Assembly: GCA_007745835.1 (NCBI GenBank)
Contig: CP036424.1
Location: 3,707,968-3,771,967, forward strand
Source: Planctomycetes bacterium MalM25
GTDB lineage: Bacteria > Planctomycetota > Planctomycetia > Pirellulales > Lacipirellulaceae
Length of the DNA stretch: 64,000 nucleotides
Direction of reading: 5' to 3'
Below are positions 2,371 to 63,887 of the stretch, piece by piece. Positions within the stretch are counted from its first letter, which is position 1; each line of letters begins with the position of its first letter. The notes below the pieces were generated by a model, which ran no database searches, was not told where the DNA came from, and saw only the letters and a program-made list of their open reading frames with translations. The position numbers and the translations under genes were made by a program.

Positions 2371-3692
2371 CAGCCCGTTGATTTCTGTTGGTCGATCGTT
2401 CGGATGAGCCAGTCGAGGGCGGCGGTGAGTAGTTGGGCGAGTTGATCGAGGAGGCCCGCCAGGGCCTTGGGCTTGCCGGCCCCCAGGAGGCTCCGCAGGA
2501 GGATCGCCAGGTTGTGGGCGGCGGCCACGATCAAGTGTCGCTTCCGCACCTTCTCGATCCCCCGCAGCCGCGTCCGCCTCGCCCCGCCCGTCTCGCATGT
2601 GTGGGCGAACGTGCGTTCGACTCGTTCCGATCTCAGCTTCTGCAAGCGGCTGTTCTTCTCGGTCTTCGTCCGCCGCCGGTTGGCGACCACCGCTTCCTTC
2701 AGCCCGCTCGGTTTATCGGTCCAACGCCGCTGGTAAGGCGAGTTGGGCTCGGGGATGTAGGTCCGCACGTTCAGGCTCTCGACCAACTCCAACTGCCCCG
2801 CCGCGTGGTACCCCTTGTCCGCCACCACCTCCTCGAAGACCTCGCCCCGGCCCGCTTCGGACACGTGGGTCCGGGCCGCCATCGCCGTGTCGGCCAGCGT
2901 TCGCGAGTCGCTCTGGTCGGCGTGGTAGACCTCCGCCGCGACCACCAGCTCGGTCTCCAGGTCGATCGCGTGCTCCGCCTTGTACGCCAGACGCGTGCGG
3001 CCGTCCTTCAGCTTCGCGATCCGCGCGTCCGGGTCGGTCGGGGACTCCCACTCGGCGTTGCTCGTCTTCTTGTTCTTCCGCTTCTTGTCGAACCGCCGCA
3101 GGTCCTCGTCCGTGGGGTCTTCGCCTTCTTCGATCTCACCCGCTTCTTGCATCAACCGCTTGACGTACGCCTTCCAGTCCTCGCCCGACTCCTTGCGAAC
3201 GATGCTCCGCATCGCCGCGTCCGCTTCGAGTGTCGTGGAGTCGACGCCGAGCGTCTTGCCCTTCAAGAGGCCCTTCTCGGCCGCCGCGGCGAGCACCAAG
3301 CGGAACGCCAGCTCATGGACCTCCAAGGGGAGCCGGTCGCGGGTCTTGCTCAAGGTCGAGTGGTCGGGGGTCCGTTCGGTGAGCTTCACCCCCAAGAACT
3401 CCCGCAGGCTGAGGCTGTCGGCGCACCGCCAGGCGATCCCACGCTGGCTGTCGATCGCTTCGAAGTACCCGACGAACAGCATCCGGAAGTACGTGCCCGG
3501 CGCGATCGAGTCGCGACCGCCCTGGGCGTCGTAGTACGGCACGCACGCCGCCTCGACCGCGTCGTCGAAGCCGCACTCCCCCAGCAGCCGGTTCAGCCGC
3601 CGGTAGAACGCGTGCCCCGGGCTCGCCGCCAGCTCGCCCGACGGCACGAACAGCTCCCCCTGCGACTCCCGCCGCCGCTTACCCATCCCCAT
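2370..3692 (-). CDS. IS transposase (DUF772 / DDE type)
   Basis: A 440-aa transposase that looks intact. The N-terminal region (PGHAFYRRLNRLL, about residues 20-130, including LREFLGVKLTERTPDHSTLS) matches the DUF772 domain common in IS1182/IS5-like transposases. A first catalytic-type Asp lies in KTLGVDSTTLEADA, a second in VVADKGYHAAG, and the C-terminus (LRGIEKVRKRHLIVAAAHNL) has the spacing expected for the final DDE region. It catalyses cut-and-paste movement of the element at 2371-3777. Its stop codon overlaps the left terminal inverted repeat. I favour an IS1182-like assignment, but the exact family needs ISfinder. Two ATGs stand close together at the start (MGMGKRR). Confidence 0.92.
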   Translation of the reverse strand: MGMGKRRRESQGELFVPSGELAASPGHAFYRRLNRLLGECGFDDAVEAACVPYYDAQGGRDSIAPGTYFRMLFVGYFEAIDSQRGIAWRCADSLSLREFLGVKLTERTPDHSTLSKTRDRLPLEVHELAFRLVLAAAAEKGLLKGKTLGVDSTTLEADAAMRSIVRKESGEDWKAYVKRLMQEAGEIEEGEDPTDEDLRRFDKKRKNKKTSNAEWESPTDPDARIAKLKDGRTRLAYKAEHAIDLETELVVAAEVYHADQSDSRTLADTAMAARTHVSEAGRGEVFEEVVADKGYHAAGQLELVESLNVRTYIPEPNSPYQRRWTDKPSGLKEAVVANRRRTKTEKNSRLQKLRSERVERTFAHTCETGGARRTRLRGIEKVRKRHLIVAAAHNLAILLRSLLGAGKPKALAGLLDQLAQLLTAALDWLIRTIDQQKSTG

Positions 3693-12900: not shown

Positions 12901-14642
12901 TCGTCGCCATCTCCGCCGAACAGGCGGTCGTCGTCCGCGCCCCCGTTGAGGTAATCCCCTCCAGCCTCGCCGTACAGCAAGTCTTCGCCCGATCGCCCAT
13001 ACATACGATCGCCCTCGGCGCCGCCGTAGAGCGTGTCGTTGTCGCGGCCCCCGTCGAGATGGTCAGCGCCGGCGTCTCCCAGCAGGCTGTCCTCGCCGTC
13101 GCCGCCCAGCAAGCTGTCGTTCCCTTCCCGACCTTCAAGGCGATCGACACCGTCCTCGCCGTTCAAGAAGTCGTCGCCGTCCCCACCGACCAAGAAGTCG
13201 TCGTCCGCGCCGCCGTTGACGTAGTCCGCGCCGGTTTCGCCGAACAGCTGATCCGCGCCGGATCGCCCGTACAGGAGATCGTCTTCGGCGCCGCCGTAGA
13301 GCGTGTCGTTGTCCCGGCCTCCGTCCAAACTGTCCTTGCCCGCGTCGCCAAAGAGGCTGTCCTCGCCGTCGCCACCCAGCAACGTGTCGTCGCCCTCGTG
13401 CCCGACGAGGCGGTCGTCTCCGTCCTCGCCGTTCAGGAAGTCGTCTTCGCTCCCTCCGAAGAGTTGATCGTTGTCATCGCCGCCATTGAGGTAGTCCTCT
13501 CCCTGCTCGCCGTACAACTGATCCGCGCCCGAGCGCCCGTACAGGCGATCGTCGTCGGCGCCGCCGTAGAGCGTGTCCTTGTCGCGGCCACCGTCCAGGT
13601 GATCCACGCCCGCGTCGCCCAAGAGAGTGTCTTCGCCATCCCCCCCCAGCAAGGTGTCATTACCGTCGCGGCCCTCCAGGCGGTCGGCGCCTTCAGCGCC
13701 GTTCAAGAAGTCATCGCCAACCCCTCCCAATAGGCGGTCGTTTTCCGAGCCCCCGTTGAGATAGTCCTCGCCCGCTTCGCCGAACAGTTGATCCGCGCCC
13801 GAACGGCCGTAGAGGACATCGTCGTCGGCGCCTCCATAGAGCGTGTCGGTATCGCGGCCCCCGTCCAGTTGATCTTCGCCCGCCTCGCCAAAGAGCGTGT
13901 CCTCGCCGTCGCCACCCAGCAGCGTGTCGTTGCCGTTGTGGCCGATGAGTCGGTCGTCGCCGGCCTCGCCGTTCAAGAAGTCATTCTCGCTCCCACCGAG
14001 CAGGATATCTTCGCCGTCGCCGCCGTTGAGATAGTCTTCTCCCGCGTTGCCATCGAGGCGGTCGTTGCCGGCCTCGCCGTAGAGTTGGTCGTCGCCGAGG
14101 TCGCCGTACAGCAGATCATCGTCGTCTCCTCCCTCGAGACGGTCCGCCCCCTCTTCGCCAAGGAGGCTGTCTTCGCCCCCGCCACCCAGCAGCGTGTCGT
14201 CCCCCTCACGGCCCTCCAGGCGGTCGTTGCCGGAGCCTCCGCTGAGGCGGTCCGCGGCGGTCCCGCCCACGAGCGTGTCGTTGCCCGCGCCCCCCTCGGC
14301 GAAGGTCGCGATGTCCGTCCGGTTGATCAGCTGGTCATCGCCGCCGTTGCCGACCAGGTGCACCGAGGTGATCGAACCCTGGGGGAATGTGCTTGTGAGC
14401 CTTTCGTCTTGCTCGTACTGCTGGACAACAATCGTCGAGTCTTCAGGCGACTTCGACACCACGACCGTGTCGTCCAAGTCGCCTCCTGTGACGACCAACC
14501 TCCCTTCCGCCGCGATCAAGATGGGGGGGGTGATCGACAAAACCCGACGGTCTTCCAACCGCTGCAGGCGTGACAGTCTTCTCGCATCGAACCGCTGGCG
14601 TGCGGTGGGGGCGTTCCGGTCGTTCTTCTTGAACGTCGACAT
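9945..14642 (-). CDS. Giant RTX / G8 / beta-helix surface protein
   Basis: A 1565-aa protein. Residues about 21-36 hold the planctomycete N-terminal LEPR-XLL-like motif (RRLSRLQRLEDRRVLS) seen on many large exported proteins. Residues about 113-800 are RTX-type calcium-binding nonapeptides (LxGGxGxDx), highly regular between 187 and 546. A His-rich linker (about 810-865) follows. A G8 domain starts near 890 (SGAWSDPNTWEGSQVP), and a right-handed beta-helix of the type found with G8 domains spans about 1040-1500. There is no RTX type I secretion signal or PEP-CTERM that I can recognise. It is probably secreted or surface-bound and calcium-stabilised; the beta-helix suggests polysaccharide binding or processing, which is inference. 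No exporter is adjacent. Confidence 0.88.
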   Translation of the reverse strand: MSTFKKNDRNAPTARQRFDARRLSRLQRLEDRRVLSITPPILIAAEGRLVVTGGDLDDTVVVSKSPEDSTIVVQQYEQDERLTSTFPQGSITSVHLVGNGGDDQLINRTDIATFAEGGAGNDTLVGGTAADRLSGGSGNDRLEGREGDDTLLGGGGEDSLLGEEGADRLEGGDDDDLLYGDLGDDQLYGEAGNDRLDGNAGEDYLNGGDGEDILLGGSENDFLNGEAGDDRLIGHNGNDTLLGGDGEDTLFGEAGEDQLDGGRDTDTLYGGADDDVLYGRSGADQLFGEAGEDYLNGGSENDRLLGGVGDDFLNGAEGADRLEGRDGNDTLLGGDGEDTLLGDAGVDHLDGGRDKDTLYGGADDDRLYGRSGADQLYGEQGEDYLNGGDDNDQLFGGSEDDFLNGEDGDDRLVGHEGDDTLLGGDGEDSLFGDAGKDSLDGGRDNDTLYGGAEDDLLYGRSGADQLFGETGADYVNGGADDDFLVGGDGDDFLNGEDGVDRLEGREGNDSLLGGDGEDSLLGDAGADHLDGGRDNDTLYGGAEGDRMYGRSGEDLLYGEAGGDYLNGGADDDRLFGGDGDDFLYGESGQDRMEGQRGDDVLFGGEDDDVLHGDADNDLLKGGDGDDTLYGDDGDDTVYGDAGRDWISGAAGNDDLLGGADDDRLFGGAGNDALSGGSGEDRLEGDGGADVLLGGDDADSLVSGDGNDIAIGGGGGDTLEGSEGEDILIGSTTAYDDQFATLREALARWNSGLSYEERVAQLSASHADITLIPHETVFADLVADTLVGGSGQDWFIISAINGTYNPLGVSHEHHDMGMHHASHHHSQAILLHHPPALEGHALIDSIDHLSDAKSTEMVQSRLAHHGDPSKLGEHFRLLQLVRYADVTHTAVTSGAWSDPNTWEGSQVPTTGARVLIPLGAQVTIDAVLQAEPHSIRVDGTLSFATDRDSELRVDTVVVTEMGALHMGTAETPVQSGVTAKLLFTDNGPIDRVADPFALGRGLITHGQVRLHGAAVTPFAAAIGGLRAGDTTLRLENAPTGWAVGDRVAIAGTDPGGSQTELREILAINGGEITIAPLEHDHVPLEAGLEVHVSNLDRNVVLESAATVNSRRGHVMFMHNRDIHISYTAFNGLGRTDKSFTLTDPEVDENWNLIGSADDNPRARYAVHFHRNGVKEDTAPATVHGSVVDGSPGWGYVNHSSYIEFTDNVAYGVNGAAFVAEAGDEIGVFDGNLALNTTGTDADVDSRFGAQDFGFNGDGFWFQSPGVSVTNNIASGSTGSAFMYYTRGLRVGGQQIVFLAENLEDSSLAGGEETILPNSAPIKEFNGNIGYASKAGLTVRYNLREAQHNATSLLSHSIFWNNETGVDLPYARNTVLRNLVVLIDPAFDALNGVDNNAQTRSVTFNNLRVEGYKRGIVVPTQGTNVVEGGYYLSKNAGLMINPADSGGLQVLVTGNPVFGAAGASSPKDIVMNFQTDNDARNPNQVFYSMDVRLQYGPYTDHRLFFHQQHADAVPFPVAVDRLPSAYVGLTQAELADQFGIAIAGEIAPDDAQTVPDIYGLLAPASGS
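13005..14084 (-). repeat. Coding super-repeat: four 90-residue units of ten RTX nonapeptides
   Basis: Within the RTX protein, residues 187-546 form four exact 90-residue (270-bp) units, each of ten nonapeptides in the same order. LYGRSGADQ recurs at residues 277, 367 and 457, with MYGRSGEDL at 547. Units 1 and 3 share DDRLxGH and LFG, while units 2 and 4 share DRLEGR and LLGDAGxDHLDGG, so a 180-residue period overlies the 90-residue one. This suggests duplication first of a 90-residue and then of a 180-residue block. Confidence 0.9.
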
Positions 14643-53764: not shown

Positions 53765-54064
53765 TCACTCGAACGATTGCGAACCCGTGTCACGGCTGTG
53801 ATGGAGCACTCGCCGGATCCGCACCGCCTGCTCCCGTTCATCGTAGCGATAGAAGATCACATAGCGACCGTGCGTGATGCAACGCAGCCCTGGGGAGATG
53901 CTCTCGGCTACGGCGCCCATCCGCGGCTGAGTTGAGATTAGCTCACAGAAGTCCATCAACTCCCGTACAACACCTCCGGCTTGCTCTGGGGCAACGCGAT
54001 CGTAGTAGTCGAGAACCTCAGCAAAGTCCTTCAAGCAGGCTTCGCTATAAACGACGCGTGTCAT
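53765..54064 (-). CDS. ParE/RelE-superfamily toxin
   Basis: A 99-aa toxin of the ParE type: VYSEACLKDFAEVLDYYDRV, PRMGAVAESISPGLRCITHG and YVIFYRYDEREQAVRIRRVL, the usual ParE helix hairpin and beta-sheet with its C-terminal IxRVLH-type strand. ParE toxins poison DNA gyrase, while RelE relatives cut mRNA; the sequence favours ParE. Its ATG overlaps the antitoxin stop by 4 bp, giving antitoxin-first, translationally coupled order. Confidence 0.88.
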   Translation of the reverse strand: MTRVVYSEACLKDFAEVLDYYDRVAPEQAGGVVRELMDFCELISTQPRMGAVAESISPGLRCITHGRYVIFYRYDEREQAVRIRRVLHHSRDTGSQSFE

Positions 54065-54333
54065 GACGAACGACGCTGATCGACCATCGCCTCAACGCGT
54101 CGTCGGAACTCGTCGGCTTCCAAGTCGGGCGCCCGATCGGCCTCGTCGATCATCGCACGGAGCCTTTCAGCCGTGGCCCCGCTCTCTCTCCTGGCCGCCG
54201 CTTCGAGCCCCGTGAGCTGCGTCGCGGGGATGATGTAGAACCCCGTGTCGCCGGCCTCGTCGATCAACGGGATCGGCTCCCCCGGATGGGCGGCGATCTC
54301 GGAAAGCTGTTCGGCCGTGAGCTTGGCGGGCAT
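54061..54333 (-). CDS. Antitoxin partner of the ParE-type toxin
   Basis: 90 aa immediately upstream of the toxin gene. The N-terminus (KLTAEQLSEIAAHPGEPIPL, then IDEAGDTGFYIIPATQL) looks like a Phd/prevent-host-death-type fold. The acidic, helical C-terminus (RLRAMIDEADRAPDLEADEF) is suited to wrap the toxin. It presumably neutralises the toxin and represses the pair's promoter. The DNA-binding part is weak, so this could be a variant antitoxin family. Confidence 0.82.
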   Translation of the reverse strand: MPAKLTAEQLSEIAAHPGEPIPLIDEAGDTGFYIIPATQLTGLEAAARRESGATAERLRAMIDEADRAPDLEADEFRRRVEAMVDQRRSS

Positions 54334-54376: not shown

Positions 54377-55120
54377 TTATTGCAGCGGAGTGCGTCGCTT
54401 CCAATCGATACTCAAGCCGATTTTCTTGCTGAAATCGCCGTTCCACTCAACCTTGAGGCCGCCATTAGACAGCTCTTCCACAACCTCGTGACCAATCGCC
54501 AATGCACGGCGACGATACTCGTCTTCATCGATTTCATCCCCGCCTCCGATAGAACCGTAACCCAGGTAGACATCGATGATAGGTCCATCCGATAGCATCT
54601 CGGCCATATTCTGATCGATGAAGAATGCGTAGCCTCTCAGCCTCTCTCGCAGTCGAGGATCTTCTTTTTCCAGCGAGTCGACACGATCCGAGAACTCACC
54701 CATCGTGCAAGAATCACAGCAGGGTGCAGCCTGCCACAGTACAATCCCTTTCTCTTGCAGGGATTCTTGTACAGCATCCAGCCGATCGCACTCGGTCTTG
54801 TCCGGCCAAGCCTTCTTCTCCGATTCGTACTTCTCGACGAAGCGGTTCAGCTCCAATTGTGCGTAAGCCTCGAACTGCGCGAACTCATCTTCAGGAGCCG
54901 TATCCTCGATGTACACAGCTTTGCAAGAATCGATGATCTCTTCAGCTCTGCTTTGAGCTAAGCGTGACTCACCAACTACGACCCAGCGAAGGGTCTCGCG
55001 TAAATCTTCGCGGTCTGATTCATCCCAACTATCTTCCTCTTGAGCCATCGTCGATCCCTGCGTAAGGGCAATTAGGGCAAGTGCCGCGACGAGGCTGATA
55101 CTATCAGGAAACCTGAACAT
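54377..55120 (-). CDS. Exported DUF6891-like protein next to the T7SS-like ATPase
   Basis: 247 aa with signal peptide (about residues 1-26, LVAALALIALTQGSTMA). The C-terminal about 140 residues (ECDRLDAVQESLQEKGIVLW, AAPCCDSCTMGEFSDRV, RLRGYAFFIDQNMAEMLSDG, LKVEWNGDFSKKIGLSIDW) resemble the DUF6891 domain; that is recognition by pattern, not by search. It starts 19 bp after the FtsK/SpoIIIE gene on the same strand, so it may be co-transcribed. It is AT-richer than the ATPase gene, which suggests separate ancestry. It could be a substrate, accessory factor or unrelated gene. Confidence 0.65.
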   Translation of the reverse strand: MFRFPDSISLVAALALIALTQGSTMAQEEDSWDESDREDLRETLRWVVVGESRLAQSRAEEIIDSCKAVYIEDTAPEDEFAQFEAYAQLELNRFVEKYESEKKAWPDKTECDRLDAVQESLQEKGIVLWQAAPCCDSCTMGEFSDRVDSLEKEDPRLRERLRGYAFFIDQNMAEMLSDGPIIDVYLGYGSIGGGDEIDEDEYRRRALAIGHEVVEELSNGGLKVEWNGDFSKKIGLSIDWKRRTPLQ

Positions 55121-55139
55121 CGTGTGACTCTTTTCTAGT

Positions 55140-58100
55140 TTACGCCCGCTGCGCCGCCGCCTCTTTCACTCGCTCCAACCACTCATCACTCGGCGCGCCG
55201 TAAGGCCGGAACTTCTCGGCCTGGCCGGTCTCGTCGTTGTAGAGCAGCGCGCGGTGCATCTGCAGGTCGCTCGCCGCCGGGGTGTCGATCAGGTGCGACG
55301 AGTCGCCCGCCGACATCTGCATCGCGATCCGCAGGGCAAATTCACGCAGCATCTGGCGGTCGAGCATCCGCGACGTGCTGTTGTACGAGTCGCACCAGAG
55401 GATGACGTGGATGCCCAGGGCCGGGCCGTTCTTCACGATCTCGGCGAACTGGGCGTCGGGCTTCTTCGGCTCGTCGCCCGACCCGCCGAAGCTGAAGTCG
55501 TCCTCGCGCTTGCGGAGCTCGCGGAAGCGGGCCGCGTTGTGCAGCACCACGTAGATCGGCGGCGGGAGCGGGGCGTTCGGATCGTCGGCGGCCGACTCGC
55601 GGCGGGCCAGCTCCTCGGTCAGCTCGGTCATCGCGCGGCCGAGGCCCGACTGGTCAACCATCTGAGCCTCGCCCGGAAGGGCGTGGACAACGCGCTGCCA
55701 GACGCCCTCGGACTCCTCGCCCGGGCGGGTCCCGTCGAGCAGGTAGGCCTTCGCCGCCGGCTCGGCGGCGAGCAGCGACACGAGGGCCGAGCTGAGCATG
55801 CCGAGCGCCGCGGGCTCGTGCGGCCCGACGCACAGCAGGTTCGCGCCCGGGTGCCGGCCGAAGTCGACCGACGCGGGCGGCTTGATCGCCACGGCGGCGC
55901 CGACCCACGCCGGCGCGGGGCGGCCCGGCTTGGGCGGCGGCGCCTCGCCGGTTAGCAGTTCGTTCAGCGGCAGGTTCTTGAGCGGGTCGGCCGGCGCGTT
56001 GCCCTCGAAGACGATCGTCTCGGGGCGCGGAAGCTCGCGGCGGTGGCGGTACTCGTCGATCTGGTCGAGCTTCTTGGCCCGCTCCTTGTCCGGAAGCCAG
56101 ACGACCTGGAACGGCTCGTTGGCGGAGACCAGCCCGTTCTGCGCGTTGTAGATCGCCTCGCCGGGGCGGCTGAGGAAGCGGGCGGCCGTGTTGCGTTCGT
56201 CGCTGAGGATCAGGTGGGCGTCGGTCTCGCTGCACTCCAGCGCCACGCGGATGGCGATCTGGCCGAGCGTGCTGCGGGCGATCGAGTAGGCGCCGGCGAG
56301 GGTCTGCGTGCCGAGCACCACGTGCATGCCGAAGGCCCTGCCCTGCCGGACGAGGCGGTCCATCAGCAGCGACGACTCTTGAGCCAGGCGGTCGTCCTCG
56401 GTGAACAACTCCTGGAACTCGTCGACAACCAGCAGCACACGGGGGACCTTCTCGTCGGGCCGCTTCTCGCGGTAATCGGCCAGGTTCTGCACGCCCACGG
56501 CGCGAAACTTCTCGCCGCGGATGCGCAGCTCGTCGTCGAGCCGCTCCAGCACGCTGAGCCCGAACTCGCGTTCGCTCTCGATCGCGATGACGCGCGCGTG
56601 CGGCAGCCGGTGCGTGGCGTACGACTTGAACTCGACCCCCTTCTTGAAGTCGACCAGGTAGAACTCGACCTCGTCCGGCCCGAAGTGCATCGCCGCGCTG
56701 GTGACCATCGCGTGCAGGAAGGTCGATTTACCCGAACCGGTCTTGCCCGCTACGAGCAGGTGTTGGGACGTTCCCTTGCCAAGGCGGACCTCTTGTAGGT
56801 TCTTCGCGCCGGCGCGGCCGATCGGCACGCGGAGTTCGCTGCCGCACGACTCGGTCCACAGCTCGCCGGGCGGGGGCTCGACGACGCTGAACGGCACCTC
56901 GACCCGCACAGCGGCTTTCGCGGCGAGGCCGGCGTTCTTGATGACCTCGATCGCCCGCTCGTTGGAGGGTTCCTCGGCCAGCTCGAGGGGCAGCTCTTCG
57001 AGCGGCGGGCGGCGCCACGCGAACCGCTCGGCTTCCTTCTCCCAATCGAGCCACGCCGAGTTGTCCTTCAGCTCGTCGAGGCGGAAATCGGTCGGCAGCC
57101 GCGCCGCGTCGTCGACCCCGAGCAGCGTGTACACACCGCAGCGCGGCCCGCCCGTCACGAGGCTCACGAGCCGGCGTCCCGCCAGCTCGCTGAAGTTGCT
57201 CGGGAAGCCGGCGGCGACCAGCACCTGGAACGGCTCGGCGACCTCGCCCGCCTGGGCGTTGTACTCGTGGATGTCTTCGTACTCGCTCCGCAAGTACTTC
57301 TGGATGACCGTCTCCATGTGGTTGGTCAGACGGCCGAGCTGCTCCTCGATGTCGCGGGTCTGGCTCCAGATCCGCCCGTTGATCAGCTGCTCGTCGGCGT
57401 CGGCCAGGTGCATGAACGCCTGGAAGTTGTCGCCGAGGCCGACCGGATCGAGGATCGTGAACCGGACCTTGCCGGGCGGCATCGCCGTGAGGAAGCGGAG
57501 CATCATCACGCGCAGCAGCTCGACGCTCCGTTTGCGTCCTTCGCCCGTGGCGGTGAGCAGCAGGTTCGGGTGCTCGGCGAGAGTCATCAGGGCGGGCGAC
57601 TCGAGGCGCGTCTCGGGCGGGCGGAGCCGCTCGTCGTCGGACAGGCCGTGGGCGACCTCCGCCAGGTCGAGCTGGGTGCTGCCGAAGGCGATCGCGGCCG
57701 GCGGGGCGGCGGGCGGCCGCCAGAGGACGCCCTCGGCCGTGGCGTCGGCGGGGTAATCGGTCGTCGCGAAGTCGGGGAAGAGCCGCTGGCACTCGCTCCG
57801 CATGTCACGCAGTTCGGCGCGGACGTCGTCGTACGAGGTGAGCCACCGCTCGAACATCGTCTGCCACGCCGACTCGGATTCCTCCTCGATCGTCTTCGTG
57901 TCGGAGGCGTGGTCCGCTTCGATGCGGGCGATCCGCTCGTCGCGGCGTTGGGTCATCTCGGAGACGCGCTCCGCGTTCTCACGCTCCAGGTCGCCCATCG
58001 AGGCGGTCTGCTGGTCGCGCAGCTCGGCCAGCTTCGCCGGGAAGACGCGGCTGATCTCGGCGAGCTCCGCGTCGCGGGCTTCGGCCGCTTCGCGGATGGT

Positions 58101-59084
58101 GCGCTCGGTCTTCTCTTCGAGCGCCTTCACGTCGGCGTCGCGTTGCGCTCGGAGCGCGGCCAGTTCGTTGTTCGCCCGCGCGACGGCCGCCGCGTTGGCG
58201 TCGTGGATGGCGGACTCGGCCTCACGCAATGCTTTTTCGGCCGCGGCGAAACCCTCGCGGGTCATGCGGCGGGCCTTCGAGCGCGGGGCGAAGTAGGCGA
58301 CCAGCGCCGTCACGACCGCCGAGCCCACGCCGATCGCGTACGTCCGCCAATCGGACCAGCCGATCGTGTAGCCCGCGGTCGGCAGGGCCGCGCTGAGCAT
58401 GCCAAGAAACGTGCCGGCCGGGATCGCGCTGCCGAGCAGACGCGGCAGCGTCTGGTCGTAGAGCGTTTGCGTCGAAGTCTTCGCGGCGCCGGCCGCTTCG
58501 CGGGCGTTCTCGGCCGCGGCTTGGCAGGCGGCGTCGTCCGCCGCGGGGTCTTCGCTCGGCTCCGGGATCGGCGCCAGCGCGTAGTCGGCGTCGGCCAGGC
58601 CACGATCGCGGGCGATGGTGACCGCCTCGACGGCGATCGCCTCGAGCTCGGCTCGCAACGCCTTGAGCCGCTTGCGGTACCCTTTGAGCTTCTCGGGCGG
58701 CTTCTTGCTCGCCGCGTCGAAGAGGGTGAGGATCTCCCACCCCTGCTCCTTCTTCTCCTGCTCGGCCTGCTTGGTGATCTTGGCCGCGCGGCTCTCCGCC
58801 TTAGTGCGGCGTTCTTTGTACTCGGCCTGGGTCCGGTCGCGCGTCGCCTCGTACGAAGCGACCAGCATCGAACGCCGACCCTCCGCCTCGCCATCGACCG
58901 ACTCCCGCTCGACGCGGTGCGCTTCCTCGACGTCGCGGCGGCGTTTGTCGCGGCGGGCCAGGGACTCTCGGCTCGCCACGGAACGCGTCTTCGCGATGCG
59001 GGCCTCCTCCGCGTGCCGCTCCGCCGCCGCGTCGCGGAGCGCCTGGAAGAGCTCCATCTGTCGGCGGGTCGAGAGTTGCGACAA
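55140..59084 (-). CDS. FtsK/SpoIIIE ATPase of a T7SS-like cluster (EccC/EssC-like)
   Basis: 1314 aa from a TTG start (ATG at 59057 is an alternative). In order: a long charged coiled coil (about 1-175), two hydrophobic membrane segments (about 213-265, GTFLGMLSAALPTAGYTIGW and YAIGVGSAVVTALVAYFAP), a second coiled coil (about 275-420), then three FtsK/SpoIIIE-like ATPase modules. Only the middle one has a canonical Walker A (GKTGSGKST, residues 780-788) and Walker B (RVLLVVDEFQELF). The first (LLLTATGEGRKRS) and third (LLCVGPHEPAALG) are degenerate. This resembles EccC/EssC motors of type VII secretion. It follows two WXG-like genes. Confidence 0.9.
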   Translation of the reverse strand: MSQLSTRRQMELFQALRDAAAERHAEEARIAKTRSVASRESLARRDKRRRDVEEAHRVERESVDGEAEGRRSMLVASYEATRDRTQAEYKERRTKAESRAAKITKQAEQEKKEQGWEILTLFDAASKKPPEKLKGYRKRLKALRAELEAIAVEAVTIARDRGLADADYALAPIPEPSEDPAADDAACQAAAENAREAAGAAKTSTQTLYDQTLPRLLGSAIPAGTFLGMLSAALPTAGYTIGWSDWRTYAIGVGSAVVTALVAYFAPRSKARRMTREGFAAAEKALREAESAIHDANAAAVARANNELAALRAQRDADVKALEEKTERTIREAAEARDAELAEISRVFPAKLAELRDQQTASMGDLERENAERVSEMTQRRDERIARIEADHASDTKTIEEESESAWQTMFERWLTSYDDVRAELRDMRSECQRLFPDFATTDYPADATAEGVLWRPPAAPPAAIAFGSTQLDLAEVAHGLSDDERLRPPETRLESPALMTLAEHPNLLLTATGEGRKRSVELLRVMMLRFLTAMPPGKVRFTILDPVGLGDNFQAFMHLADADEQLINGRIWSQTRDIEEQLGRLTNHMETVIQKYLRSEYEDIHEYNAQAGEVAEPFQVLVAAGFPSNFSELAGRRLVSLVTGGPRCGVYTLLGVDDAARLPTDFRLDELKDNSAWLDWEKEAERFAWRRPPLEELPLELAEEPSNERAIEVIKNAGLAAKAAVRVEVPFSVVEPPPGELWTESCGSELRVPIGRAGAKNLQEVRLGKGTSQHLLVAGKTGSGKSTFLHAMVTSAAMHFGPDEVEFYLVDFKKGVEFKSYATHRLPHARVIAIESEREFGLSVLERLDDELRIRGEKFRAVGVQNLADYREKRPDEKVPRVLLVVDEFQELFTEDDRLAQESSLLMDRLVRQGRAFGMHVVLGTQTLAGAYSIARSTLGQIAIRVALECSETDAHLILSDERNTAARFLSRPGEAIYNAQNGLVSANEPFQVVWLPDKERAKKLDQIDEYRHRRELPRPETIVFEGNAPADPLKNLPLNELLTGEAPPPKPGRPAPAWVGAAVAIKPPASVDFGRHPGANLLCVGPHEPAALGMLSSALVSLLAAEPAAKAYLLDGTRPGEESEGVWQRVVHALPGEAQMVDQSGLGRAMTELTEELARRESAADDPNAPLPPPIYVVLHNAARFRELRKREDDFSFGGSGDEPKKPDAQFAEIVKNGPALGIHVILWCDSYNSTSRMLDRQMLREFALRIAMQMSAGDSSHLIDTPAASDLQMHRALLYNDETGQAEKFRPYGAPSDEWLERVKEAAAQRA

Positions 59085-59146
59085 GGGGAAGCCTGCGGTC
59101 AGCGGAGAGGGGGTGGGGACGCTTTAGTCTACCTAGAAAGTGGGGG

Positions 59147-59371
59147 TCAGCCCTCCAGGTCGCGCTGGGCTTGCTGGAGCAACTGGCGCATCCGGCCCAC
59201 GGCGTCGAGCGCCGTCTTCACAACCGGCGCCATCGGCTCCAGGTGCTCCTCGAAGACGGCCCGCGACGCCGAGTCGTTCCACTCCTCGGAGGCCTCTTCC
59301 CACACGCGGTAGACGTCCTTGAGCCCCCGCCGGAGCCGGCCGGCTCCCGTGTCGAGATCGCACGACTTCAT
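59147..59371 (-). CDS. Small WXG100-like protein
   Basis: 74 aa from the ATG at 59371, which overlaps the preceding stop by 4 bp and has GGAGGAG as a strong Shine-Dalgarno sequence. Two helices flank a turn, VWEEASEEWNDSASRAVFEE, where the W-N-D takes the WXG position, followed by HLEPMAPVVKTALDAVGRM. There is no signal peptide. The length and layout fit the ESAT-6-like fold, but it is shorter than the usual about 100 aa. It is translationally coupled to the helical gene before it. Confidence 0.72.
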   Translation of the reverse strand: MKSCDLDTGAGRLRRGLKDVYRVWEEASEEWNDSASRAVFEEHLEPMAPVVKTALDAVGRMRQLLQQAQRDLEG

Positions 59372-59913
59372 GCCGACTCCTCCTCCGACTTGGGTTCTTC
59401 GGCTTCGACCGGCTCCGCCTTGGGCAACGGGGCCGCGGGCGTGCCCGAGAGGTATCGCTCCAGCGCTTCGGTCTGGCGTTCGATCAGCGCGATGGTGCGC
59501 GGCGTGTCGATCTCCACGAGCGACTTGAGCTGCGACATGCGCCCCTCGTACTCGTGCATCTCGTGCCGGAGGACGCGCACCCACTCACGGACGCGGCGCT
59601 GCTTCTCCTCGCAGTGGGCGAGGTACGCCTGAGCCTTCTTCAGCTCGGCCTTCTCTTCGGCGCACGAGGGGGTCTCGTCGTTCAGCGGGTACATCAGGCA
59701 GCGGGAGAGGTTCGCCTTCGCCTCGCCGACGGCGTCGAACGCCTTGCTGACGCGCATCTTCCAGTAGGCGGGCCGATCGTGCTCGATCCAGTCGAGCACC
59801 CGGCGGATCTCGCCCGCCAACTCACCCATACCGTCGGTCGAGCGCTGCTTGAAGCGGATCAGCTCGTCGCGAACAAGCTCCAACGCCTCGAACGATTCGA
59901 CCTTGGCGGGCAT
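59368..59913 (-). CDS. Helical protein of the T7SS-like cluster
   Basis: 181 aa, almost entirely helical and charged, with no membrane or signal segment: ELAGEIRRVLDWIEHDRPAY near residue 30, MRVSKAFDAVGEAKANLSRC, a long coiled coil (about 80-150, AELKKAQAYLAHCEEKQRRV and WVRVLRHEMHEYEGRMSQL), and an acidic Pro/Glu-rich tail (PKAEPVEAEEPKSEEESA). I do not recognise a family. The size and place between two WXG-like genes suggest a chaperone, a scaffold or a longer secreted WXG/LXG-type relative. Confidence 0.6.
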   Translation of the reverse strand: MPAKVESFEALELVRDELIRFKQRSTDGMGELAGEIRRVLDWIEHDRPAYWKMRVSKAFDAVGEAKANLSRCLMYPLNDETPSCAEEKAELKKAQAYLAHCEEKQRRVREWVRVLRHEMHEYEGRMSQLKSLVEIDTPRTIALIERQTEALERYLSGTPAAPLPKAEPVEAEEPKSEEESA

Positions 59914-59979
59914 GAACCAAAGGGGGAATGGGGAAGGCGGAAGGGGGAGTGACGCGGGAGTGACTCGAACGTCAGGGGC

Positions 59980-60252
59980 CTACCGTTGCTGGAGATACTC
60001 CTCGATCCGCTCCGCCTTGCGGATCAAGAACGGGGCGTGCTCGTTCGTCGTTTCGATGTAGCGCTGAATCGCTTTCATCTGCTGCTCGAAGTCCTCGGTG
60101 AACTTCTTGTGCTCCTGGTCGCGCCAGCTCGTGCCCAGCGCGTGCAGCTGTGCGGCCAGGGAGGTCATGCGCTCCTCGAGCTCGCCGTTGAAGCGACGCA
60201 AGTTGTTCGCGAACCGACGGAGTTCGATGGGATCGACGATCGCTTGCGACAT
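59980..60252 (-). CDS. WXG100-family (ESAT-6-like) protein
   Basis: 90 aa, two helices with a central turn: DPIELRRFANNLRRFNGELE, then MTSLAAQLHALGTSWRDQEH where W-R-D fills the WXG position, then KKFTEDFEQQMKAIQRYIET. This matches the WXG100 fold in size and pattern, with Asp replacing the usual Gly. No signal peptide, as expected for type VII substrates. It is the first gene of the minus-strand cluster leading to the FtsK/SpoIIIE ATPase. It is either the secreted substrate or a structural partner. Confidence 0.8.
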   Translation of the reverse strand: MSQAIVDPIELRRFANNLRRFNGELEERMTSLAAQLHALGTSWRDQEHKKFTEDFEQQMKAIQRYIETTNEHAPFLIRKAERIEEYLQQR

Positions 60253-60295
60253 CGGGTAGCCCTAGCACAGGTTAAACAACGGGAGTCCGCTCCGT

Positions 60296-60351
60296 GCGCT
60301 GACGCTTACGGCTCGCCGTTAAGCCTGACAGCGAGCCGTAAGCGTCAGCGC
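60296..60351. repeat. Perfect 21-bp inverted repeat (REP-like or terminator)
   Basis: 60296-60316 and 60331-60351 are exact reverse complements around a 14-base loop. The arm core reads CTGACGCTTACGGCTCGC. It lies between the FAAL fusion gene and the WXG100-like gene, both on the minus strand, so it could end the fusion transcript; there is no T-run. The sequence looks like intergenic palindromes repeated in planctomycete genomes (recalled, not searched). Confidence 0.75.
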
Positions 60352-60371
60352 CCGGAGAGCTGCATTATAGG

Positions 60372-63300
60372 TCAAACCGCCGCCGGAGGCCCGTCGTTCA
60401 GGCGCGACGCGGAGGAGGCGCCGATCATCGTTTCGCCCTTGCCCGCCTGCGGTATTGCCGCGGGGTCTATTTTCGCGAGCTTCAGAGCGACTTCCTCGCG
60501 GGCGTCCACGAGGGCGGCGATCGCCGTGCGGATCTGCTCTTCGCTGTGGGCGGAGGTGACGAAGAACCGCAACCGGGCCGCGGCCTCCTCCACCGCCGGG
60601 TGGAGGATCGGCTGGACGTTCACGCCCCGCTCGAACATGGCCATCGACAGCGCGAGCGCCATCCGTGAGTCGCCCGTGATGATCGGCACGACGGGCGAAC
60701 CCTGCGAGGGGCCCGTGTCGAAGCCCGCCTCCTTCGCCAGCTTCAGGAATAGCGCGGAGTTCTCGTGCAGCTTCGCCACACGCTCGGGCTCCGCGTCGAG
60801 CACCCGCAGCGCGGCCAGGCCAGCCGCCGTGTTCGCGGGTGACACGCCGCCCGAGAAGACGAACGTCGGAGCGGTGTACTTCAGGTACTCGATGATCTCG
60901 CGGCTCGCGGCGATGTAGCCGCCGCAACTGCCCAAGCCCTTGCTGATGGTGCCCATCCAGAGGTCGACACGGCGGGGCTCGACGTCCCAGTACTCGCTCA
61001 TGCCGCGGCCGGTCGGCCCCATGGTGCCGATCGAGTGCGCCTCGTCGATCATGAGCCACGCCTTGTGGCGTTCCTTCATGTCGACGAAGGGGCGGATGTC
61101 GGCGAAGTCGCCGTCCATGCTGTAGACGCCCTCGATGACGATTAGCACCTTGCGGTACTCGCCGCGGTACTGCTCGAGGAGTTTCTCGCAGGCGGCCGCG
61201 TCGTTGTGCGGGAAGGCCCGCCGCAACGCGCCGGAGAGCTTGCAGCCCTGGATGATGCTGTTGTGCGCGAGCGCGTCGTGCAGCACGAGGTCGCCGGGGC
61301 CGAGCAGGTGGCCGATCACCGACTCGTTGGTGCAGTGGCCGCTCGCCATGACGATCGCGTCGTCGACGCCGATGAAGTCGGCGATCCCTTTCTCCAACTC
61401 GCGGTGCACCGTCTTCTCACCGGAGACCACGCGGCTGGCGGAGGTGCTCGTGCCGAACTGCTCGATCGCTTGCTGGGCCGCGTCGGAGACCGACGGTTCG
61501 CCGGACATGCCGAGGTAGTTGTAGCTGCAGAAGTTCACGTACTCCTTCCCGCCGATGCGAGCCGTGTCGCTCGTCACCCCTTCGTGCTGCGTGAAGTACG
61601 GGTTCTTCAGGCCCGCCAGCTCCGCGAGCTGCTTGGTCTGCTGCAGCCGCTGGTACTCGGGCGACTCGGAGAAGACGTAGTCCGACTCAGGCGTCTCGCG
61701 GCGTTCGGCTGCGCCGGTCGCTGGTCCGTTTGCCGCTGGGCCCCGTGCCGGGGGCGGACGGCGGGTCGAGCCGCCATTGGACTCCCCCAGCAGACACCGA
61801 TTGACCTGCTCGACAACGTCGCGGCTGGTCTCCATGGTGAGGATCGCTTCTTCCGTGAAACGCCCGCCGAAGTCTTGCTCCAGCAGCGAGACGATCTCCA
61901 TCCGCTCGAGCGAGTCGAGCCCCATCCCGGCGATGTCCGTGTCGAGCGTCAGGTTCGTGGCCCGTTCCTGGGCGACCGAGCGGACGACCGCCAACACGCG
62001 TTCGGAGGTGTCGTTCGGGTCGGCCGCTGCGGAAGGCGCTGACGCCGCGACGGGTTTCTTCTCCACGGCGGGTCGATCGACCGCCTCGCGGCGTCGGCGT
62101 GCGCGGAGCACCTCGACCGAGCCGTCGCGTGGGCAGACGGCGACCACTTCCAACTCGCCCGCCTCGTAGGCGGCGCGGGCCGCGTGGCGTTGGATCTTGC
62201 CGCTGGAGGTCTTGGGGATCGAGTTCGGCTTGATCAGCACAACCTCGCGCGGGCTCACCTCGTGCAGCTTGCCGAGTTGAGAGCGGATCGCTCCGCAGAC
62301 CTCCTTCAGGTCCGCTTGGCGGTTGCGCGGGGCCTCTTGGACCAGCACCATCTCTTCCGCGCCATCCGCCCCAACGGCGAACGCCGCGCCGGCGCCGACC
62401 GGCAAGTCCTCGTGAGCTTCCTCGGCGGTGGTCTCCAGGTCCTGCGGGTAGTGATTCACGCCGCGCAGGATGATCAGGTCCTTCAGACGGCCGTTGACGA
62501 AGAGCTCGGGCTGGCCGTCCGCGGCGGTGTGCAGGCAACCGAGGTCGCCCGTCCGCATGAAGGGGCCCCGGCCGTCGGCCGTCTTGGCGAGGAAGGTCTC
62601 GGCGGTTGCGTCCTCGCGACGCCAGTACCCCTTGGCGACGCTGGGGCCCTGCACCCAGATCTCGCCCACGCGGCCCATCGGCTGCTCAGCAAGGGTCTCG
62701 GGATCGACCACCAGCACGGTCTGGTCCTTCGCGCTGTGCCCCGAGCTGACCAACTGGACCGAGCCTTCAGCGCCCTCGGCGGCGGCTTCGGCGCGGCCCG
62801 CCTGCATCGCCTCGGCGTCGAACGAGCGCATCGGTGGGGCGATGAGCTTGTCGCCGCCGGTCACCATCAGCGTCCCCTCCGCCAGGCCGTAGCAGGGGTA
62901 GAACGCCTCGCGGCGGAAACCGCACTCGGCGAACGCCTCGGCGAAGCGGTCGAGCGTCTCGGCGCGGACCGGCTCGGCGCCGTTGAAGGCGATCTGCCAC
63001 TGGCTCAGGTCGAGCGTCTTCTTCTCCTCGTCGGTGACACGATCGACGCACAGGTCGTAGGCGAAGTTCGGCCCGCCGCTGATCGAAGCGCCCGTGTCCG
63101 ACAACGCCCGCAACCAGCGGAGCGGCTTCTGCAGGAAGTGCGTGGGCGTCATCACGTTGGTGGGACGGCCGAAGTAGATCGGCTGCAGGATGCCGCCGAT
63201 CAGGCCCATGTCGTGGTAGAGCGGGAGCCAAGTCATGCCCAAGCCGTCCGCCGGCGCCTGGTACGCGCGGGAGATCAGCTGCGTGTTGTGCAGCAGGTTG

Positions 63301-63887
63301 CCGTGGCTGACCATCACGCCCTTCGGCGTGCCGGTGCTGCCGGAGGTGTACTGCAGGAAAGCGAGCGTGTCGGGCGTGATCTGCGGGTCGGCCCAGGCCG
63401 CCGCGTCCGACTCGCCGAGCTCGCGGGTGCACTTCCATTCGAGCGCGGCCAGGTCGGGCGTCTCGTCGAGGATCGGCTCGATGCGTCCGAGCACGTCGTC
63501 GGTGGTCAGGCAGATCTTCGGCTCGGCGTCGCCGACGATCGAGCGGATGCGTTCCAGGTTCCGGTTCCGCCGCGGCGGATAGGCGGGCACGGCCACGACA
63601 CCGGCGTACAGGCACCCGAAGAACGCCGCGATGAACTGCTGCCCCGACGGGTACAGCAAGAGAGCCCGCTCGCCCGCCAAGCCGCGGCTCTGCAAGTAGC
63701 CGGCGATCGCGCGAGCGCGGGCGTCGAGTTGGCCGTAGTTCAGGTGCTCGCGCTGCTGCTCGCCATCGATCAAGAAGGTGAAGGCGCGCTGGTGCCCCAA
63801 CGTGCGTGCGCGCTGGCGGAGAAGTCCCACCAGATCGACGATGTCGGGGGTCAGGCCGTAAGTCTCGAAGGAATCAGAGGCTGCCAC
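60372..63887 (-). CDS. Fatty acyl-AMP ligase / ACP / alpha-oxoamine synthase fusion
   Basis: 1171 aa, three enzymes in one chain. Residues about 1-590 are an adenylating enzyme with YTSGSTGTPKGVMVSHGNLL, the pattern of fatty acyl-AMP ligases. Residues about 635-715 are an acyl carrier domain with its phosphopantetheine Ser in GMGLDSLERMEI. Residues about 760-1150 are a PLP-dependent alpha-oxoamine synthase (YNYLGMSGEPSV, IDEAHSIGTMGPTGRGMSEY, Lys near 981 in WMGTISKGLGSCGGY). The expected path is fatty acid to acyl-AMP to acyl-ACP, then decarboxylative condensation with an amino acid to a 3-ketoamine lipid, as in sphingolipid-type synthesis. The chain order and single-protein format are notable. 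No partner genes are adjacent. Confidence 0.92.
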   Translation of the reverse strand: MAASDSFETYGLTPDIVDLVGLLRQRARTLGHQRAFTFLIDGEQQREHLNYGQLDARARAIAGYLQSRGLAGERALLLYPSGQQFIAAFFGCLYAGVVAVPAYPPRRNRNLERIRSIVGDAEPKICLTTDDVLGRIEPILDETPDLAALEWKCTRELGESDAAAWADPQITPDTLAFLQYTSGSTGTPKGVMVSHGNLLHNTQLISRAYQAPADGLGMTWLPLYHDMGLIGGILQPIYFGRPTNVMTPTHFLQKPLRWLRALSDTGASISGGPNFAYDLCVDRVTDEEKKTLDLSQWQIAFNGAEPVRAETLDRFAEAFAECGFRREAFYPCYGLAEGTLMVTGGDKLIAPPMRSFDAEAMQAGRAEAAAEGAEGSVQLVSSGHSAKDQTVLVVDPETLAEQPMGRVGEIWVQGPSVAKGYWRREDATAETFLAKTADGRGPFMRTGDLGCLHTAADGQPELFVNGRLKDLIILRGVNHYPQDLETTAEEAHEDLPVGAGAAFAVGADGAEEMVLVQEAPRNRQADLKEVCGAIRSQLGKLHEVSPREVVLIKPNSIPKTSSGKIQRHAARAAYEAGELEVVAVCPRDGSVEVLRARRRREAVDRPAVEKKPVAASAPSAAADPNDTSERVLAVVRSVAQERATNLTLDTDIAGMGLDSLERMEIVSLLEQDFGGRFTEEAILTMETSRDVVEQVNRCLLGESNGGSTRRPPPARGPAANGPATGAAERRETPESDYVFSESPEYQRLQQTKQLAELAGLKNPYFTQHEGVTSDTARIGGKEYVNFCSYNYLGMSGEPSVSDAAQQAIEQFGTSTSASRVVSGEKTVHRELEKGIADFIGVDDAIVMASGHCTNESVIGHLLGPGDLVLHDALAHNSIIQGCKLSGALRRAFPHNDAAACEKLLEQYRGEYRKVLIVIEGVYSMDGDFADIRPFVDMKERHKAWLMIDEAHSIGTMGPTGRGMSEYWDVEPRRVDLWMGTISKGLGSCGGYIAASREIIEYLKYTAPTFVFSGGVSPANTAAGLAALRVLDAEPERVAKLHENSALFLKLAKEAGFDTGPSQGSPVVPIITGDSRMALALSMAMFERGVNVQPILHPAVEEAAARLRFFVTSAHSEEQIRTAIAALVDAREEVALKLAKIDPAAIPQAGKGETMIGASSASRLNDGPPAAV

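What the first reader, a model, noticed from the sequence alone, without database searches (positions are those of the whole stretch)
54377..60252. Compact type VII secretion-like cluster in a planctomycete: two WXG-like proteins, a helical protein and an EccC/EssC-like ATPase
Seen: on the minus strand, four genes run in close order (gaps of 66, -4 and 62 bp): a 90-aa WXG100-like protein, a 181-aa helical protein, a 74-aa WXG-like protein and a 1314-aa FtsK/SpoIIIE ATPase. An exported DUF6891-like gene follows. Known: WXG100 substrates with an FtsK-type motor define type VII secretion, best studied in monoderms and mycobacteria. Inference: this is a reduced variant in a diderm-like bacterium with none of the other membrane subunits (EccB/D/E, EssA/B, YukD) visible nearby. 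How substrates would pass two membranes is open.
Basis: partly seen in the sequence, partly recalled or inferred. Interest (0 to 1): 0.75.

Follow-up and report, generated by a model that had tools for sequence, protein, structure and literature searches.

The report
Toxin-less type VII-like gene module
A four-gene set of three small helical-hairpin proteins and a membrane motor, related to the type VII secretion machines of Gram-positive bacteria, is kept or lost as a unit in planctomycetes and lacks the toxin cargo that some distant relatives carry; what it exports, if anything, is untested.

Summary
The minus strand of 55140-60252 encodes a WXG100 protein (90 aa), a helical protein (181 aa), a second WXG-like protein (74 aa) and a 1314-aa FtsK/SpoIIIE ATPase. 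All four lie in the same order and strand in 48 of 53 planctomycete regions and 60 of 80 further loci. In 149 sampled genomes the WXG protein and the ATPase occur in the same 19, the helical protein in 18 of these. The ATPase models as a three-domain EccC-like motor with only the middle site kept. The WXG protein's nearest solved relative is H. pylori HP0062. The 181-aa protein is a very long two-helix hairpin that matches the N-terminal domain of a larger Rhodococcus protein. In Helicobacter and Caballeronia plasmid loci its slot holds a nuclease and a putative effector. WXG plus a 'middle-active' ATPase in planctomycetes was noted in a 2012 table footnote. New here: the hairpin family, co-inheritance, vertical descent, and no toxin. 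Export is inferred. The DUF6891 gene is no part of it.

The parts
59980..60252 (-). P0001, 90-aa WXG100 protein of the HP0062 type; W43-x-D45 turn, invariant Tyr86 near the C-terminus
   Evidence: PF06013 40.7 bits; PDB profile hit HP0062 3fx7 E 3.4e-17 with a profile that holds three outgroup sequences, 6.8e-10 with planctomycete sequences alone; Tyr in 112 of 112 unique sequences
59368..59913 (-). P0002, 181-aa long helical hairpin (helices 8-74 and 85-155), tail of low confidence; invariant Tyr154; Cys72/Cys84 near the turn
   Evidence: AlphaFold2 model mean pLDDT 91.3; Tyr154 in 110 of 110 unique sequences; no Pfam or NCBIfam family over its cut-off for P0002
59147..59371 (-). P0009, 74-aa WXG-like protein; W31-x-D33
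   Evidence: PF06013 17.3 bits, below cut-off; 5 of 41 family members match PF06013 at E 0.01; family profile hits EsxA 2vs0 E 7e-4; profile match to P0001 E 1e-6 or 5.6e-6 without outgroups
55140..59084 (-). P0004, 1314-aa ATPase of the EccC/EssC type: helical N-terminus, hydrophobic segment(s), helical stretch, three RecA-like domains
   Evidence: PF01580; Foldseek best hit EccC 4nh0 E 6.9e-32; present with the others in 48 of 53 and 60 of 80 loci
58284..58439 (-). P0004 hydrophobic region, about residues 216-267
   Evidence: Hydropathy scan: at least one segment in 56 of 59 orthologues, two in 38 of 59; one passes in the window protein
56721..56747 (-). Walker A (GKTGSGKST) of the middle ATPase domain, residues 780-788
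   Evidence: Invariant but for its second residue in the 41-sequence alignment A6; no equivalent conserved in the first or third domain
56418..56423 (-). Walker B Asp-Glu (DEF) of the middle ATPase domain, residues 888-889
   Evidence: Invariant in A6

Best explanation
A type VII-like translocation module of a separate, HP0062-type branch, inherited vertically in Planctomycetota and without toxin cargo. Proposed mechanism: P0001, P0009 and the long hairpin P0002 assemble into one helical bundle in the cytoplasm, much as EsxA/B, PE/PPE or LXG-Lap1-Lap2 complexes do. The end of the second helix of P0001 and of P0002, marked by a shared [LIV]-[ED]-x-Tyr motif, docks on the ATPase P0004, which sits in the inner membrane through its hydrophobic region. 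Docking assembles the ATPase ring, and ATP hydrolysis in its middle domain moves the bundle across the inner membrane. Shown: gene order, co-occurrence, families, predicted fold of P0002, predicted three-domain ATPase with one conserved site, shared Tyr motif. Inferred: complex formation, docking, export, and that the bundle itself is the product. Outer-membrane passage is unexplained; a periplasmic end point is simplest.
For: The ATPase model is closest to the EccC cytoplasmic region, and NCBIfam and PDB sequence hits are EccC/EssC first. P0001 is over the WXG100 cut-off and matches HP0062, EsxB and EsxA structures. P0001-P0009 profile match E 1e-6, best of 60 column-shuffled decoys 0.013. 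P0002-P0001 match over the first helix E 1.3e-5, best of 60 decoys 0.03. Co-inheritance: the same 19 of 149 genomes for P0001 and P0004, 18 of these for P0002; 12 of 12 genomes chosen for lacking P0002 lack the other two; in four class-mates the genes are scattered yet P0001, P0002 and P0004 are all kept. P0002 matches the N-terminal 139 residues of a 314-aa Rhodococcus protein beside such an ATPase (E 2.9e-7; best of 180 shuffles 0.024, best of 104 coiled-coil decoys 0.0023). Helicobacter and Caballeronia loci have the same slot order, in the first with a WHH nuclease and a SUKH immunity gene. Precedent for missing partners: a Bacillota system without EssA, EssB and EsaA still secretes a WXG100 protein (PMC11217815, passage read).
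Against: No export was measured. No effector is known: only P0001 passes the WXG100 cut-off in the genome, and the 30 longest P0002 sequences printed show only low-complexity tails. YukD and EssB models find nothing in the genome. YxxxD/E is absent from P0001 (0 of 112) and P0009 (0 of 104) and follows the invariant Tyr of P0002 in 4 of 110. With planctomycete sequences alone the P0002-P0001 match falls to E 4e-4, probability 35%. The Caballeronia and Deinococcus ATPases show no hydrophobic segment in the same scan, so membrane export is not a proven property of the whole group; in Deinococcus the adjacent 142-aa gene has one. P0002 matches the Caballeronia (E 0.035) and Helicobacter (E 0.054) slot proteins no better than decoys. 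In Rhodococcus and Deinococcus the gene order differs. P0002's Foldseek search gave no hit at E 0.001. Seven of 80 loci have P0001 with room but without all of the rest nearby, not followed genome-wide.
Confidence: 0.5

Rival explanations
1. Not a secretion system: a membrane-anchored ATPase complex in which the WXG-type hairpins are permanent regulatory or scaffold subunits, serving an envelope or housekeeping job.
For: No cargo seen, P0002 in 32 of 36 family-f1 genomes, YukD and EssB absent from the genome, genes may be scattered, and some relatives have ATPases without hydrophobic segments. P0002 is single in 44 of the 46 genomes with a hit (G035 has two strong copies, G022 a marginal second).
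Against: The ATPase and hairpins are specifically EccC- and Esx-like, and a relative with the same slot order carries a nuclease-immunity pair, which suggests delivery out of the cell there.
Confidence: 0.28
2. An active interbacterial toxin-delivery system whose effectors are encoded elsewhere and lack recognisable WXG or P0002-type domains.
For: Helicobacter and Caballeronia relatives have effector-like genes in the module; Zhang et al. 2012 describe such systems as apparent mobile T7SS (PMC3482391, passages read).
Against: In this genome no second copy of P0001 or P0002 was found by profile and no other WXG100 protein over the cut-off; no immunity-type gene stands in the slot; the ATPase tree is taxonomy-like.
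Confidence: 0.12
3. An FtsK-like DNA translocase, conjugation coupling ATPase or HerA/SspH-like defence ATPase that happens to sit beside WXG proteins.
For: PF01580 domain; Foldseek also lists FtsK and TcpA motors; PADLOC models SspH (82.5 bits) and mad8 (70 bits) match the middle domain.
Against: EccC/EssC rank first by sequence and fold, no FtsK gamma domain among the Pfam hits, and co-inheritance with the WXG protein.
Confidence: 0.05

Closest known systems
[quoted passage not shown] 2012, PMC3482391, table footnote 6; passages read)
   Same: Solo WXG domain, three-domain ATPase with only the middle site kept; planctomycetes are named
   Different: The passages read do not mention a second WXG-like protein or the P0002 family
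HP0062 of Helicobacter pylori (structures 3fx7, 2gts; PMC3397514 passages read)
   Same: Nearest solved relative of P0001; WRD turn and C-terminal Tyr-Leu align; the review lists a cluster with an FtsK/SpoIIIE-domain protein among its ESAT-6-like traits
   Different: In the Helicobacter plasmid locus examined the P0002 slot holds a protein with a WHH nuclease domain, followed by a SUKH immunity gene, and the ATPase has 823 aa
LXG effector with Lap1/Lap2 targeting factors, T7SSb (PMC9600955, abstract and passages read)
   Same: One long helical domain, two small WXG100-like partners and a motif near the end of a second helix
   Different: No toxin domain; motif is [LIV][ED]xY, not FxxxD; two of three hairpins carry it; no EssB or YukD found
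T7SSa (ESX) with EccC and PE/PPE or EsxA/EsxB
   Same: EccC-like ATPase, WXG proteins in a pair, a longer helical partner
   Different: PMC11217815 (passage read) gives EccC two transmembrane domains and four nucleotide-binding domains; P0004 models with three and keeps one site, in the middle. No YxxxD/E in P0001 (0 of 112); EccB search uninformative
T7SSc-j of Gram-positive bacteria (PMC11217815, abstract and passages read)
   Same: The shared core is the ATPase and a WXG100 protein; T7SSc also has vWA, kinase and phosphatase genes, as the Caballeronia locus does
   Different: Most have a YukD-like protein; the paper does not name planctomycetes (term not found in the main text)

Membership tests
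Type VII secretion in the broad sense (EccC/EssC ATPase plus WXG100 protein) | EccC/EssC-type ATPase with tandem FtsK domains | tested here: met
   Foldseek 4nh0 E 6.9e-32, three domains; PDB EccC first. NCBIfam curated cut-offs are not reached: EccCa 109 of 509 bits
Type VII secretion in the broad sense (EccC/EssC ATPase plus WXG100 protein) | WXG100 protein encoded with the ATPase | tested here: met
   P0001 40.7 bits, cut-off 27.3; below the NCBIfam WXG100_ESAT6 cut-off (29.8 of 44.85); the turn is W-x-D
Type VII secretion in the broad sense (EccC/EssC ATPase plus WXG100 protein) | Two N-terminal transmembrane helices on the ATPase | tested here: inconclusive
   Crude hydropathy: two segments in 38 of 59, one in 18, none in 3; one in the window protein
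Type VII secretion in the broad sense (EccC/EssC ATPase plus WXG100 protein) | ATPase-dependent export of the WXG protein | not testable with these tools
   Needs cell fractionation
T7SSa (ESX) | EccB, EccD, EccE partners | tested here: inconclusive
   EccB model: 0 of 19 genomes, but it rang in no control either; EccD and EccE not tested
T7SSa (ESX) | YxxxD/E signal at the C-terminus of a substrate | tested here: not met
   P0001 0 of 112, last 15 residues; P0009 0 of 104, last 20; P0002 4 of 110 at the invariant Tyr, not the window's (window sequence)
T7SSb | EssB/YukC and EsaB/YukD | tested here: not met
   YukC 0 of 19 with B. subtilis control over the cut-off or ringing; YukD absent from the own genome, over the cut-off in 4 of 19 relatives
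T7SSb | FHA domains at the ATPase N-terminus (feature recalled) | tested here: not met
   No FHA among Pfam hits of P0004
Zhang 2012 middle-active ATPase plus solo WXG group | Three ATPase domains, only the middle one active | tested here: met
   Walker A and B conserved only in the middle domain; activity itself not measured
Zhang 2012 middle-active ATPase plus solo WXG group | Mobile distribution | tested here: not met
   56-sequence tree: family f1 25 of 25 in one clade (support 1.0), f66 3 of 3, f85 2 of 2, f30 4 of 4. The order alone is not a clade; class f21 nests in it, at weak support (0.351)
FtsK DNA translocase | C-terminal gamma winged-helix domain (feature recalled) | tested here: not met
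   Not among Pfam hits of P0004

The most novel reading that the evidence does not exclude
A toxin-delivery machine domesticated for the cell's own envelope: an effector's long-hairpin trafficking domain lost its toxin, and the three-hairpin bundle itself became the exported or assembled product, kept as an inherited part of the planctomycete cell and using a [LIV][ED]xTyr docking signal instead of YxxxD/E.
Probability: 0.3. Interest if true: 0.8.

Novelty: new variant of a known kind. Interest (0 to 1): 0.58.

Why it matters
A 2016 survey held that ESX is absent from LPS-bearing diderms and left it out (PMC4793230, passage read). Here the two-part core of that machine, with a protein family that Pfam and NCBIfam do not name, is inherited in several families of a phylum usually counted as diderm (recalled). 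That makes it testable how a motor plus hairpins can work without the usual membrane partners, and what such a machine does when there is no toxin to deliver.

Tried and rejected
DUF6891 gene as a fifth component: rejected, no homologue at E 1e-10 in the other loci. FtsK or HerA-type reading: rejected on ranking and missing gamma domain. Mobile-element reading: not supported for planctomycetes (the three outgroup sequences do not form one clade, so the root is uncertain). Cys72/Cys84 as a disulfide sign: suggestive only; Cys72 never occurs without Cys84 (57 both, 19 Cys84 only, 34 neither), but the rows are related. A shared Cys-turn motif in outgroup proteins: three of four carry it, but shuffles reach it in 8%, 47% and 10%, so it is weak. 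P0002 homology to the Caballeronia and Helicobacter slot proteins by profile: not above decoys. P0009-like nature of the Helicobacter 77-aa protein: not supported by profile (E 0.15); position only. P0002 N-terminal profile against outgroup N-termini: the best hit was the Caballeronia WXG protein (16.4 bits); the four slot proteins score 2.0-9.0 bits, near the best decoys. Rhodococcus C-terminal domain as ParB-like and Caballeronia C-terminus as a PD-(D/E)XK nuclease: by eye and recall only; Pfam found no family for the first and only a weak unrelated hit for the second. Pfam and NCBIfam on 61 P0002 members: scattered weak coiled-coil hits, at most 6 of 61 members for one family. PADLOC match of P0001 to Cmr6 (21.4 bits): taken as a helical chance match. 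Fold search of P0002: no hit at E 0.001. EccB search: uninformative. Promoter and terminator scan: nothing beyond chance in number.
Full report
Where it lies. The window is bases 3707968-3771967 of a 4.72-Mb single-contig genome, 95.1% complete. Loci fetched by the P0001 profile carry names such as Botrimarina, Aeoliella, Adhaeretor, Bythopirellula and Pirellulales. G003, listed as the same genus as the window's genome, lies on a contig of 506139 bases, the length of the Botrimarina hoheduenensis contig behind L109, so the genus is probably Botrimarina (inference). The planctomycete reading is right.

The observation. I call them P0001 (90 aa), P0002 (181 aa), P0009 (74 aa) and P0004 (1314 aa). 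P0001 passes Pfam's WXG100 cut-off (40.7 against 27.3 bits), P0009 does not (17.3 bits), P0002 has no family over its cut-off, and P0004 has the FtsK/SpoIIIE domain at 122 bits. A whole-genome search with WXG100 finds P0001 over the cut-off (39.7 bits) and P0009 at E 0.068; four other places have E 0.2 or worse, and at that lax limit all 14 control genomes ring too. Of 41 P0009 family members, 5 match WXG100 at E 0.01. The turn motif is W-x-D: W43 and D45 are invariant in 40 P0001 sequences, W31 and D33 in 41 P0009 sequences.

Conservation of the set. P0002 was found in 46 of 59 relatives (32 of 36 in the own family) and, as a single sequence, in 17 of 149 genomes drawn from the phylum; both counts include the own genome. 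I fetched regions of 18 kb or less for 52 of the other 61 genomes with a hit. With the window that makes 53 loci: P0002 in 53 (chosen for it), P0009 in 51, P0001 in 49, P0004 in 48; the 48 with all four have them in the same order on one strand.

Co-inheritance. In the 149-genome sample the P0001 profile matches 19 genomes, P0004 at E 1e-20 matches the same 19, and the P0002 profile matches 18 of these plus one marginal place in another genome (G176, E 3.6e-4). Only the best candidates of each genome were scored in these calls (up to 35, 4 and 22). The exception, G165, keeps P0001 and an ATPase ORF of 1006 aa; between them lies a 119-aa protein with hydrophobic stretches (by eye), and downstream a 983-aa protein. 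Sixteen genomes were then searched with P0004 and with the P0001 profile. Twelve, chosen because they lack P0002, have no P0001 and only generic FtsK matches to P0004 (best E 6.5e-15 to 2.2e-11). The other four (G082, G145, G163, G194), where P0002 lies alone or with P0009, have both elsewhere; in G082 the places are megabases apart on one contig. So P0001, P0002 and P0004 are kept or lost together even when they are not an operon. The counts are not independent events, since genomes are related. P0009 was not searched genome-wide. Copies are usually single, but G035 has two strong P0002 places and G134 two ATPase places.

Inheritance. A FastTree tree of 56 ATPases puts all 25 family-f1 sequences in one clade with support 1.0, and f66 (3 of 3), f85 (2 of 2) and f30 (4 of 4, support 0.957) in clades of their own; the class-mates f21 nest within the order beside f1, deep nodes are weak (0.351 for order plus class), and the three outgroup sequences do not group, so the root is uncertain. 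In f1 the module also keeps its neighbour, a FAAL-ACP-oxoamine synthase fusion (P0006), in 23 loci including the window, 47-832 nt upstream. This argues for vertical inheritance with losses.

The ATPase. NCBIfam and PDB sequence searches rank EccC/EssC first, far below NCBIfam's curated cut-offs. The model of residues 430-1314 (mean pLDDT 88.1, pTM 0.76) has three RecA-like domains, and its best Foldseek matches are the EccC cytoplasmic region 4nh0 (E 6.9e-32, 964 columns, TM-score 0.40, rmsd 16) and EccC/EssC pieces; FtsK and TcpA motors follow. The low global TM-score would fit domains turned against one another (inference). Only the middle domain keeps Walker A (GKTGSGKST, residues 780-788) and Walker B (D888, E889). 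A hydropathy scan finds at least one hydrophobic segment between about residues 200 and 310 in 56 of 59 orthologues and two in 38 (one of the 60 fragments was left out for lack of a Walker A site); the window protein has one over threshold.

The hairpins. P0001's profile matches HP0062 of Helicobacter pylori best (3fx7, E 3.4e-17), then EsxB (E 1.5e-10) and EsxA (E 1.3e-5) structures. That profile holds three outgroup sequences, one from Helicobacter; with 19 planctomycete sequences alone HP0062 is still first (E 6.8e-10), then EsxB (3.7e-8), with EsxA at 0.0068. HP0062 aligns through its WRD turn and a C-terminal Tyr-Leu. P0009's profile matches EsxA 2vs0 at E 7e-4 and P0001's profile at E 1e-6 (5.6e-6 without outgroups), against 0.013 for the best of 60 column-shuffled decoys. 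P0002 models as two very long antiparallel helices, residues 8-74 and 85-155, mean pLDDT 91.3. Its first 40 residues match P0001's first helix at E 1.3e-5 (best of 60 decoys 0.03), but only at E 4e-4 (probability 35%) without outgroups, so this link is probable, not firm; it does not match P0009 (E 0.14). P0001 and P0002 both end their second helix with an invariant Tyr (112 of 112 and 110 of 110 unique sequences), with Leu/Ile/Val three before in 105 of 112 and 110 of 110, and Glu/Asp two before in 103 of 112 and 98 of 110. The mycobacterial YxxxD/E signal is absent from P0001 (0 of 112) and P0009 (0 of 104), and follows the invariant Tyr of P0002 in 4 of 110. I propose [LIV][ED]xY as the docking signal; that is inference.

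The missing toxin. P0004 matches 431 plasmid records, none over 80% of its length; I looked at four loci, H1, H3, H4 and H8, chosen by rank and host. In Helicobacter sp. NHP19-012 the order is WXG, 340-aa protein ending in a WHH nuclease (PF14414, 44.6 bits), SUKH immunity protein, 77-aa protein, ATPase. In Caballeronia it is WXG, 436-aa protein with no Pfam family over its cut-off, 113-aa protein, 76-aa protein, ATPase, then CARF, vWA, phosphatase and kinase genes. Rhodococcus has another order, ATPase, 314-aa protein, 73-aa protein, WXG-like 87-aa protein; the 314-aa protein starts with a P0002-type domain (139 residues, E 2.9e-7) followed by further sequence of no Pfam family; decoys reach 0.024 (180 shuffles) and 0.0023 (104 real coiled coils). 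Deinococcus differs in order too, and its 326-aa protein is intermediate (E 4e-4, around the turn only). Helicobacter and Caballeronia slot proteins do not match above decoys, so there the link is position only. In planctomycetes the 30 longest P0002 sequences printed end in low-complexity tails. The simplest reading is that P0002 sits in an effector slot and has no toxin. Whether a toxin was lost here or gained elsewhere is not settled.

Known and new. Zhang et al. 2012 (PMC3482391; passages read) noted, in a table footnote, solo WXG domains with a distinct three-domain, middle-active ATPase in several diderm groups including planctomycetes, which 'appear to be mobile versions of T7SS'. HP0062's likeness to ESAT-6, with an FtsK-type neighbour, is in a 2012 review (PMC3397514; passages read). 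A 2016 survey held ESX absent from LPS-bearing diderms (PMC4793230; passage read). Searches of the open-access library for type VII, WXG100 or ESAT-6 with planctomycetes, WXG with FtsK and Pirellula, EccC with WXG and verrucomicrobia, WXG100 with T7SS, proteobacteria and cyanobacteria, and WXG100 with FtsK and Gram-negative or diderm (of which 20 of 34 and 15 of 64 papers were listed) showed no title on this module; other papers were not searched. New here, as far as those searches go: the P0002 family, the second WXG-like gene as a regular member, co-inheritance even when scattered, vertical descent, the shared Tyr motif, and the contrast with toxin-bearing relatives.

Verdict. A real, widespread and under-described type VII-like module. 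It fits the broad class defined by an EccC/EssC ATPase and a WXG100 protein, but not T7SSa or T7SSb as tested. Export is the working model at about even odds; a non-secretory ATPase complex is the main rival.

Noticed in passing
60372-63887 (-): FAAL - acyl carrier - oxoamine synthase fusion (AMP-binding, PP-binding, aminotransferase I/II) sits 47-832 nt upstream of the module in 23 loci of set 1 including the window (all family f1) and in 21 of 80 loci of set 2.
   Followed up: partly
60290-60357: Inverted repeat with 30-nt arms, 93% complementary, 8 nt apart, between the synthase gene and P0001; terminator- or REP-like; no other copy of its core in the window.
   Followed up: partly
53765-54333 (-): ParE-type toxin (PF05016, 54.6 bits) overlapping a 90-aa gene that could be its antitoxin; not found in the other loci.
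   Followed up: partly
54377-55120 (-): DUF6891 gene with a signal-peptide-like start (by eye), 19 nt after the ATPase gene; found in no other locus scanned.
   Followed up: yes
9945-14642 (-): 1565-aa protein with 29 RTX calcium-binding stretches, a G8 domain and a CEMIP-type beta-helix.
   Followed up: no
2370-3692 (-): Transposase (DUF772/DDE).
   Followed up: no
L218:7042-13569: Variant in G165: P0001, a 119-aa protein with hydrophobic stretches, a shorter ATPase, and a 983-aa protein with a weak HEAT match.
   Followed up: partly
L054 (Caballeronia plasmid): WXG-ATPase locus with two vWA genes, a CARF (DUF1887) gene, a PP2C phosphatase and a Ser/Thr kinase.
   Followed up: partly
G001, G007, G008, G040: YukD-like genes over the Pfam cut-off in 4 of 19 relatives but not in the own genome; their surroundings were not looked at.
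   Followed up: no
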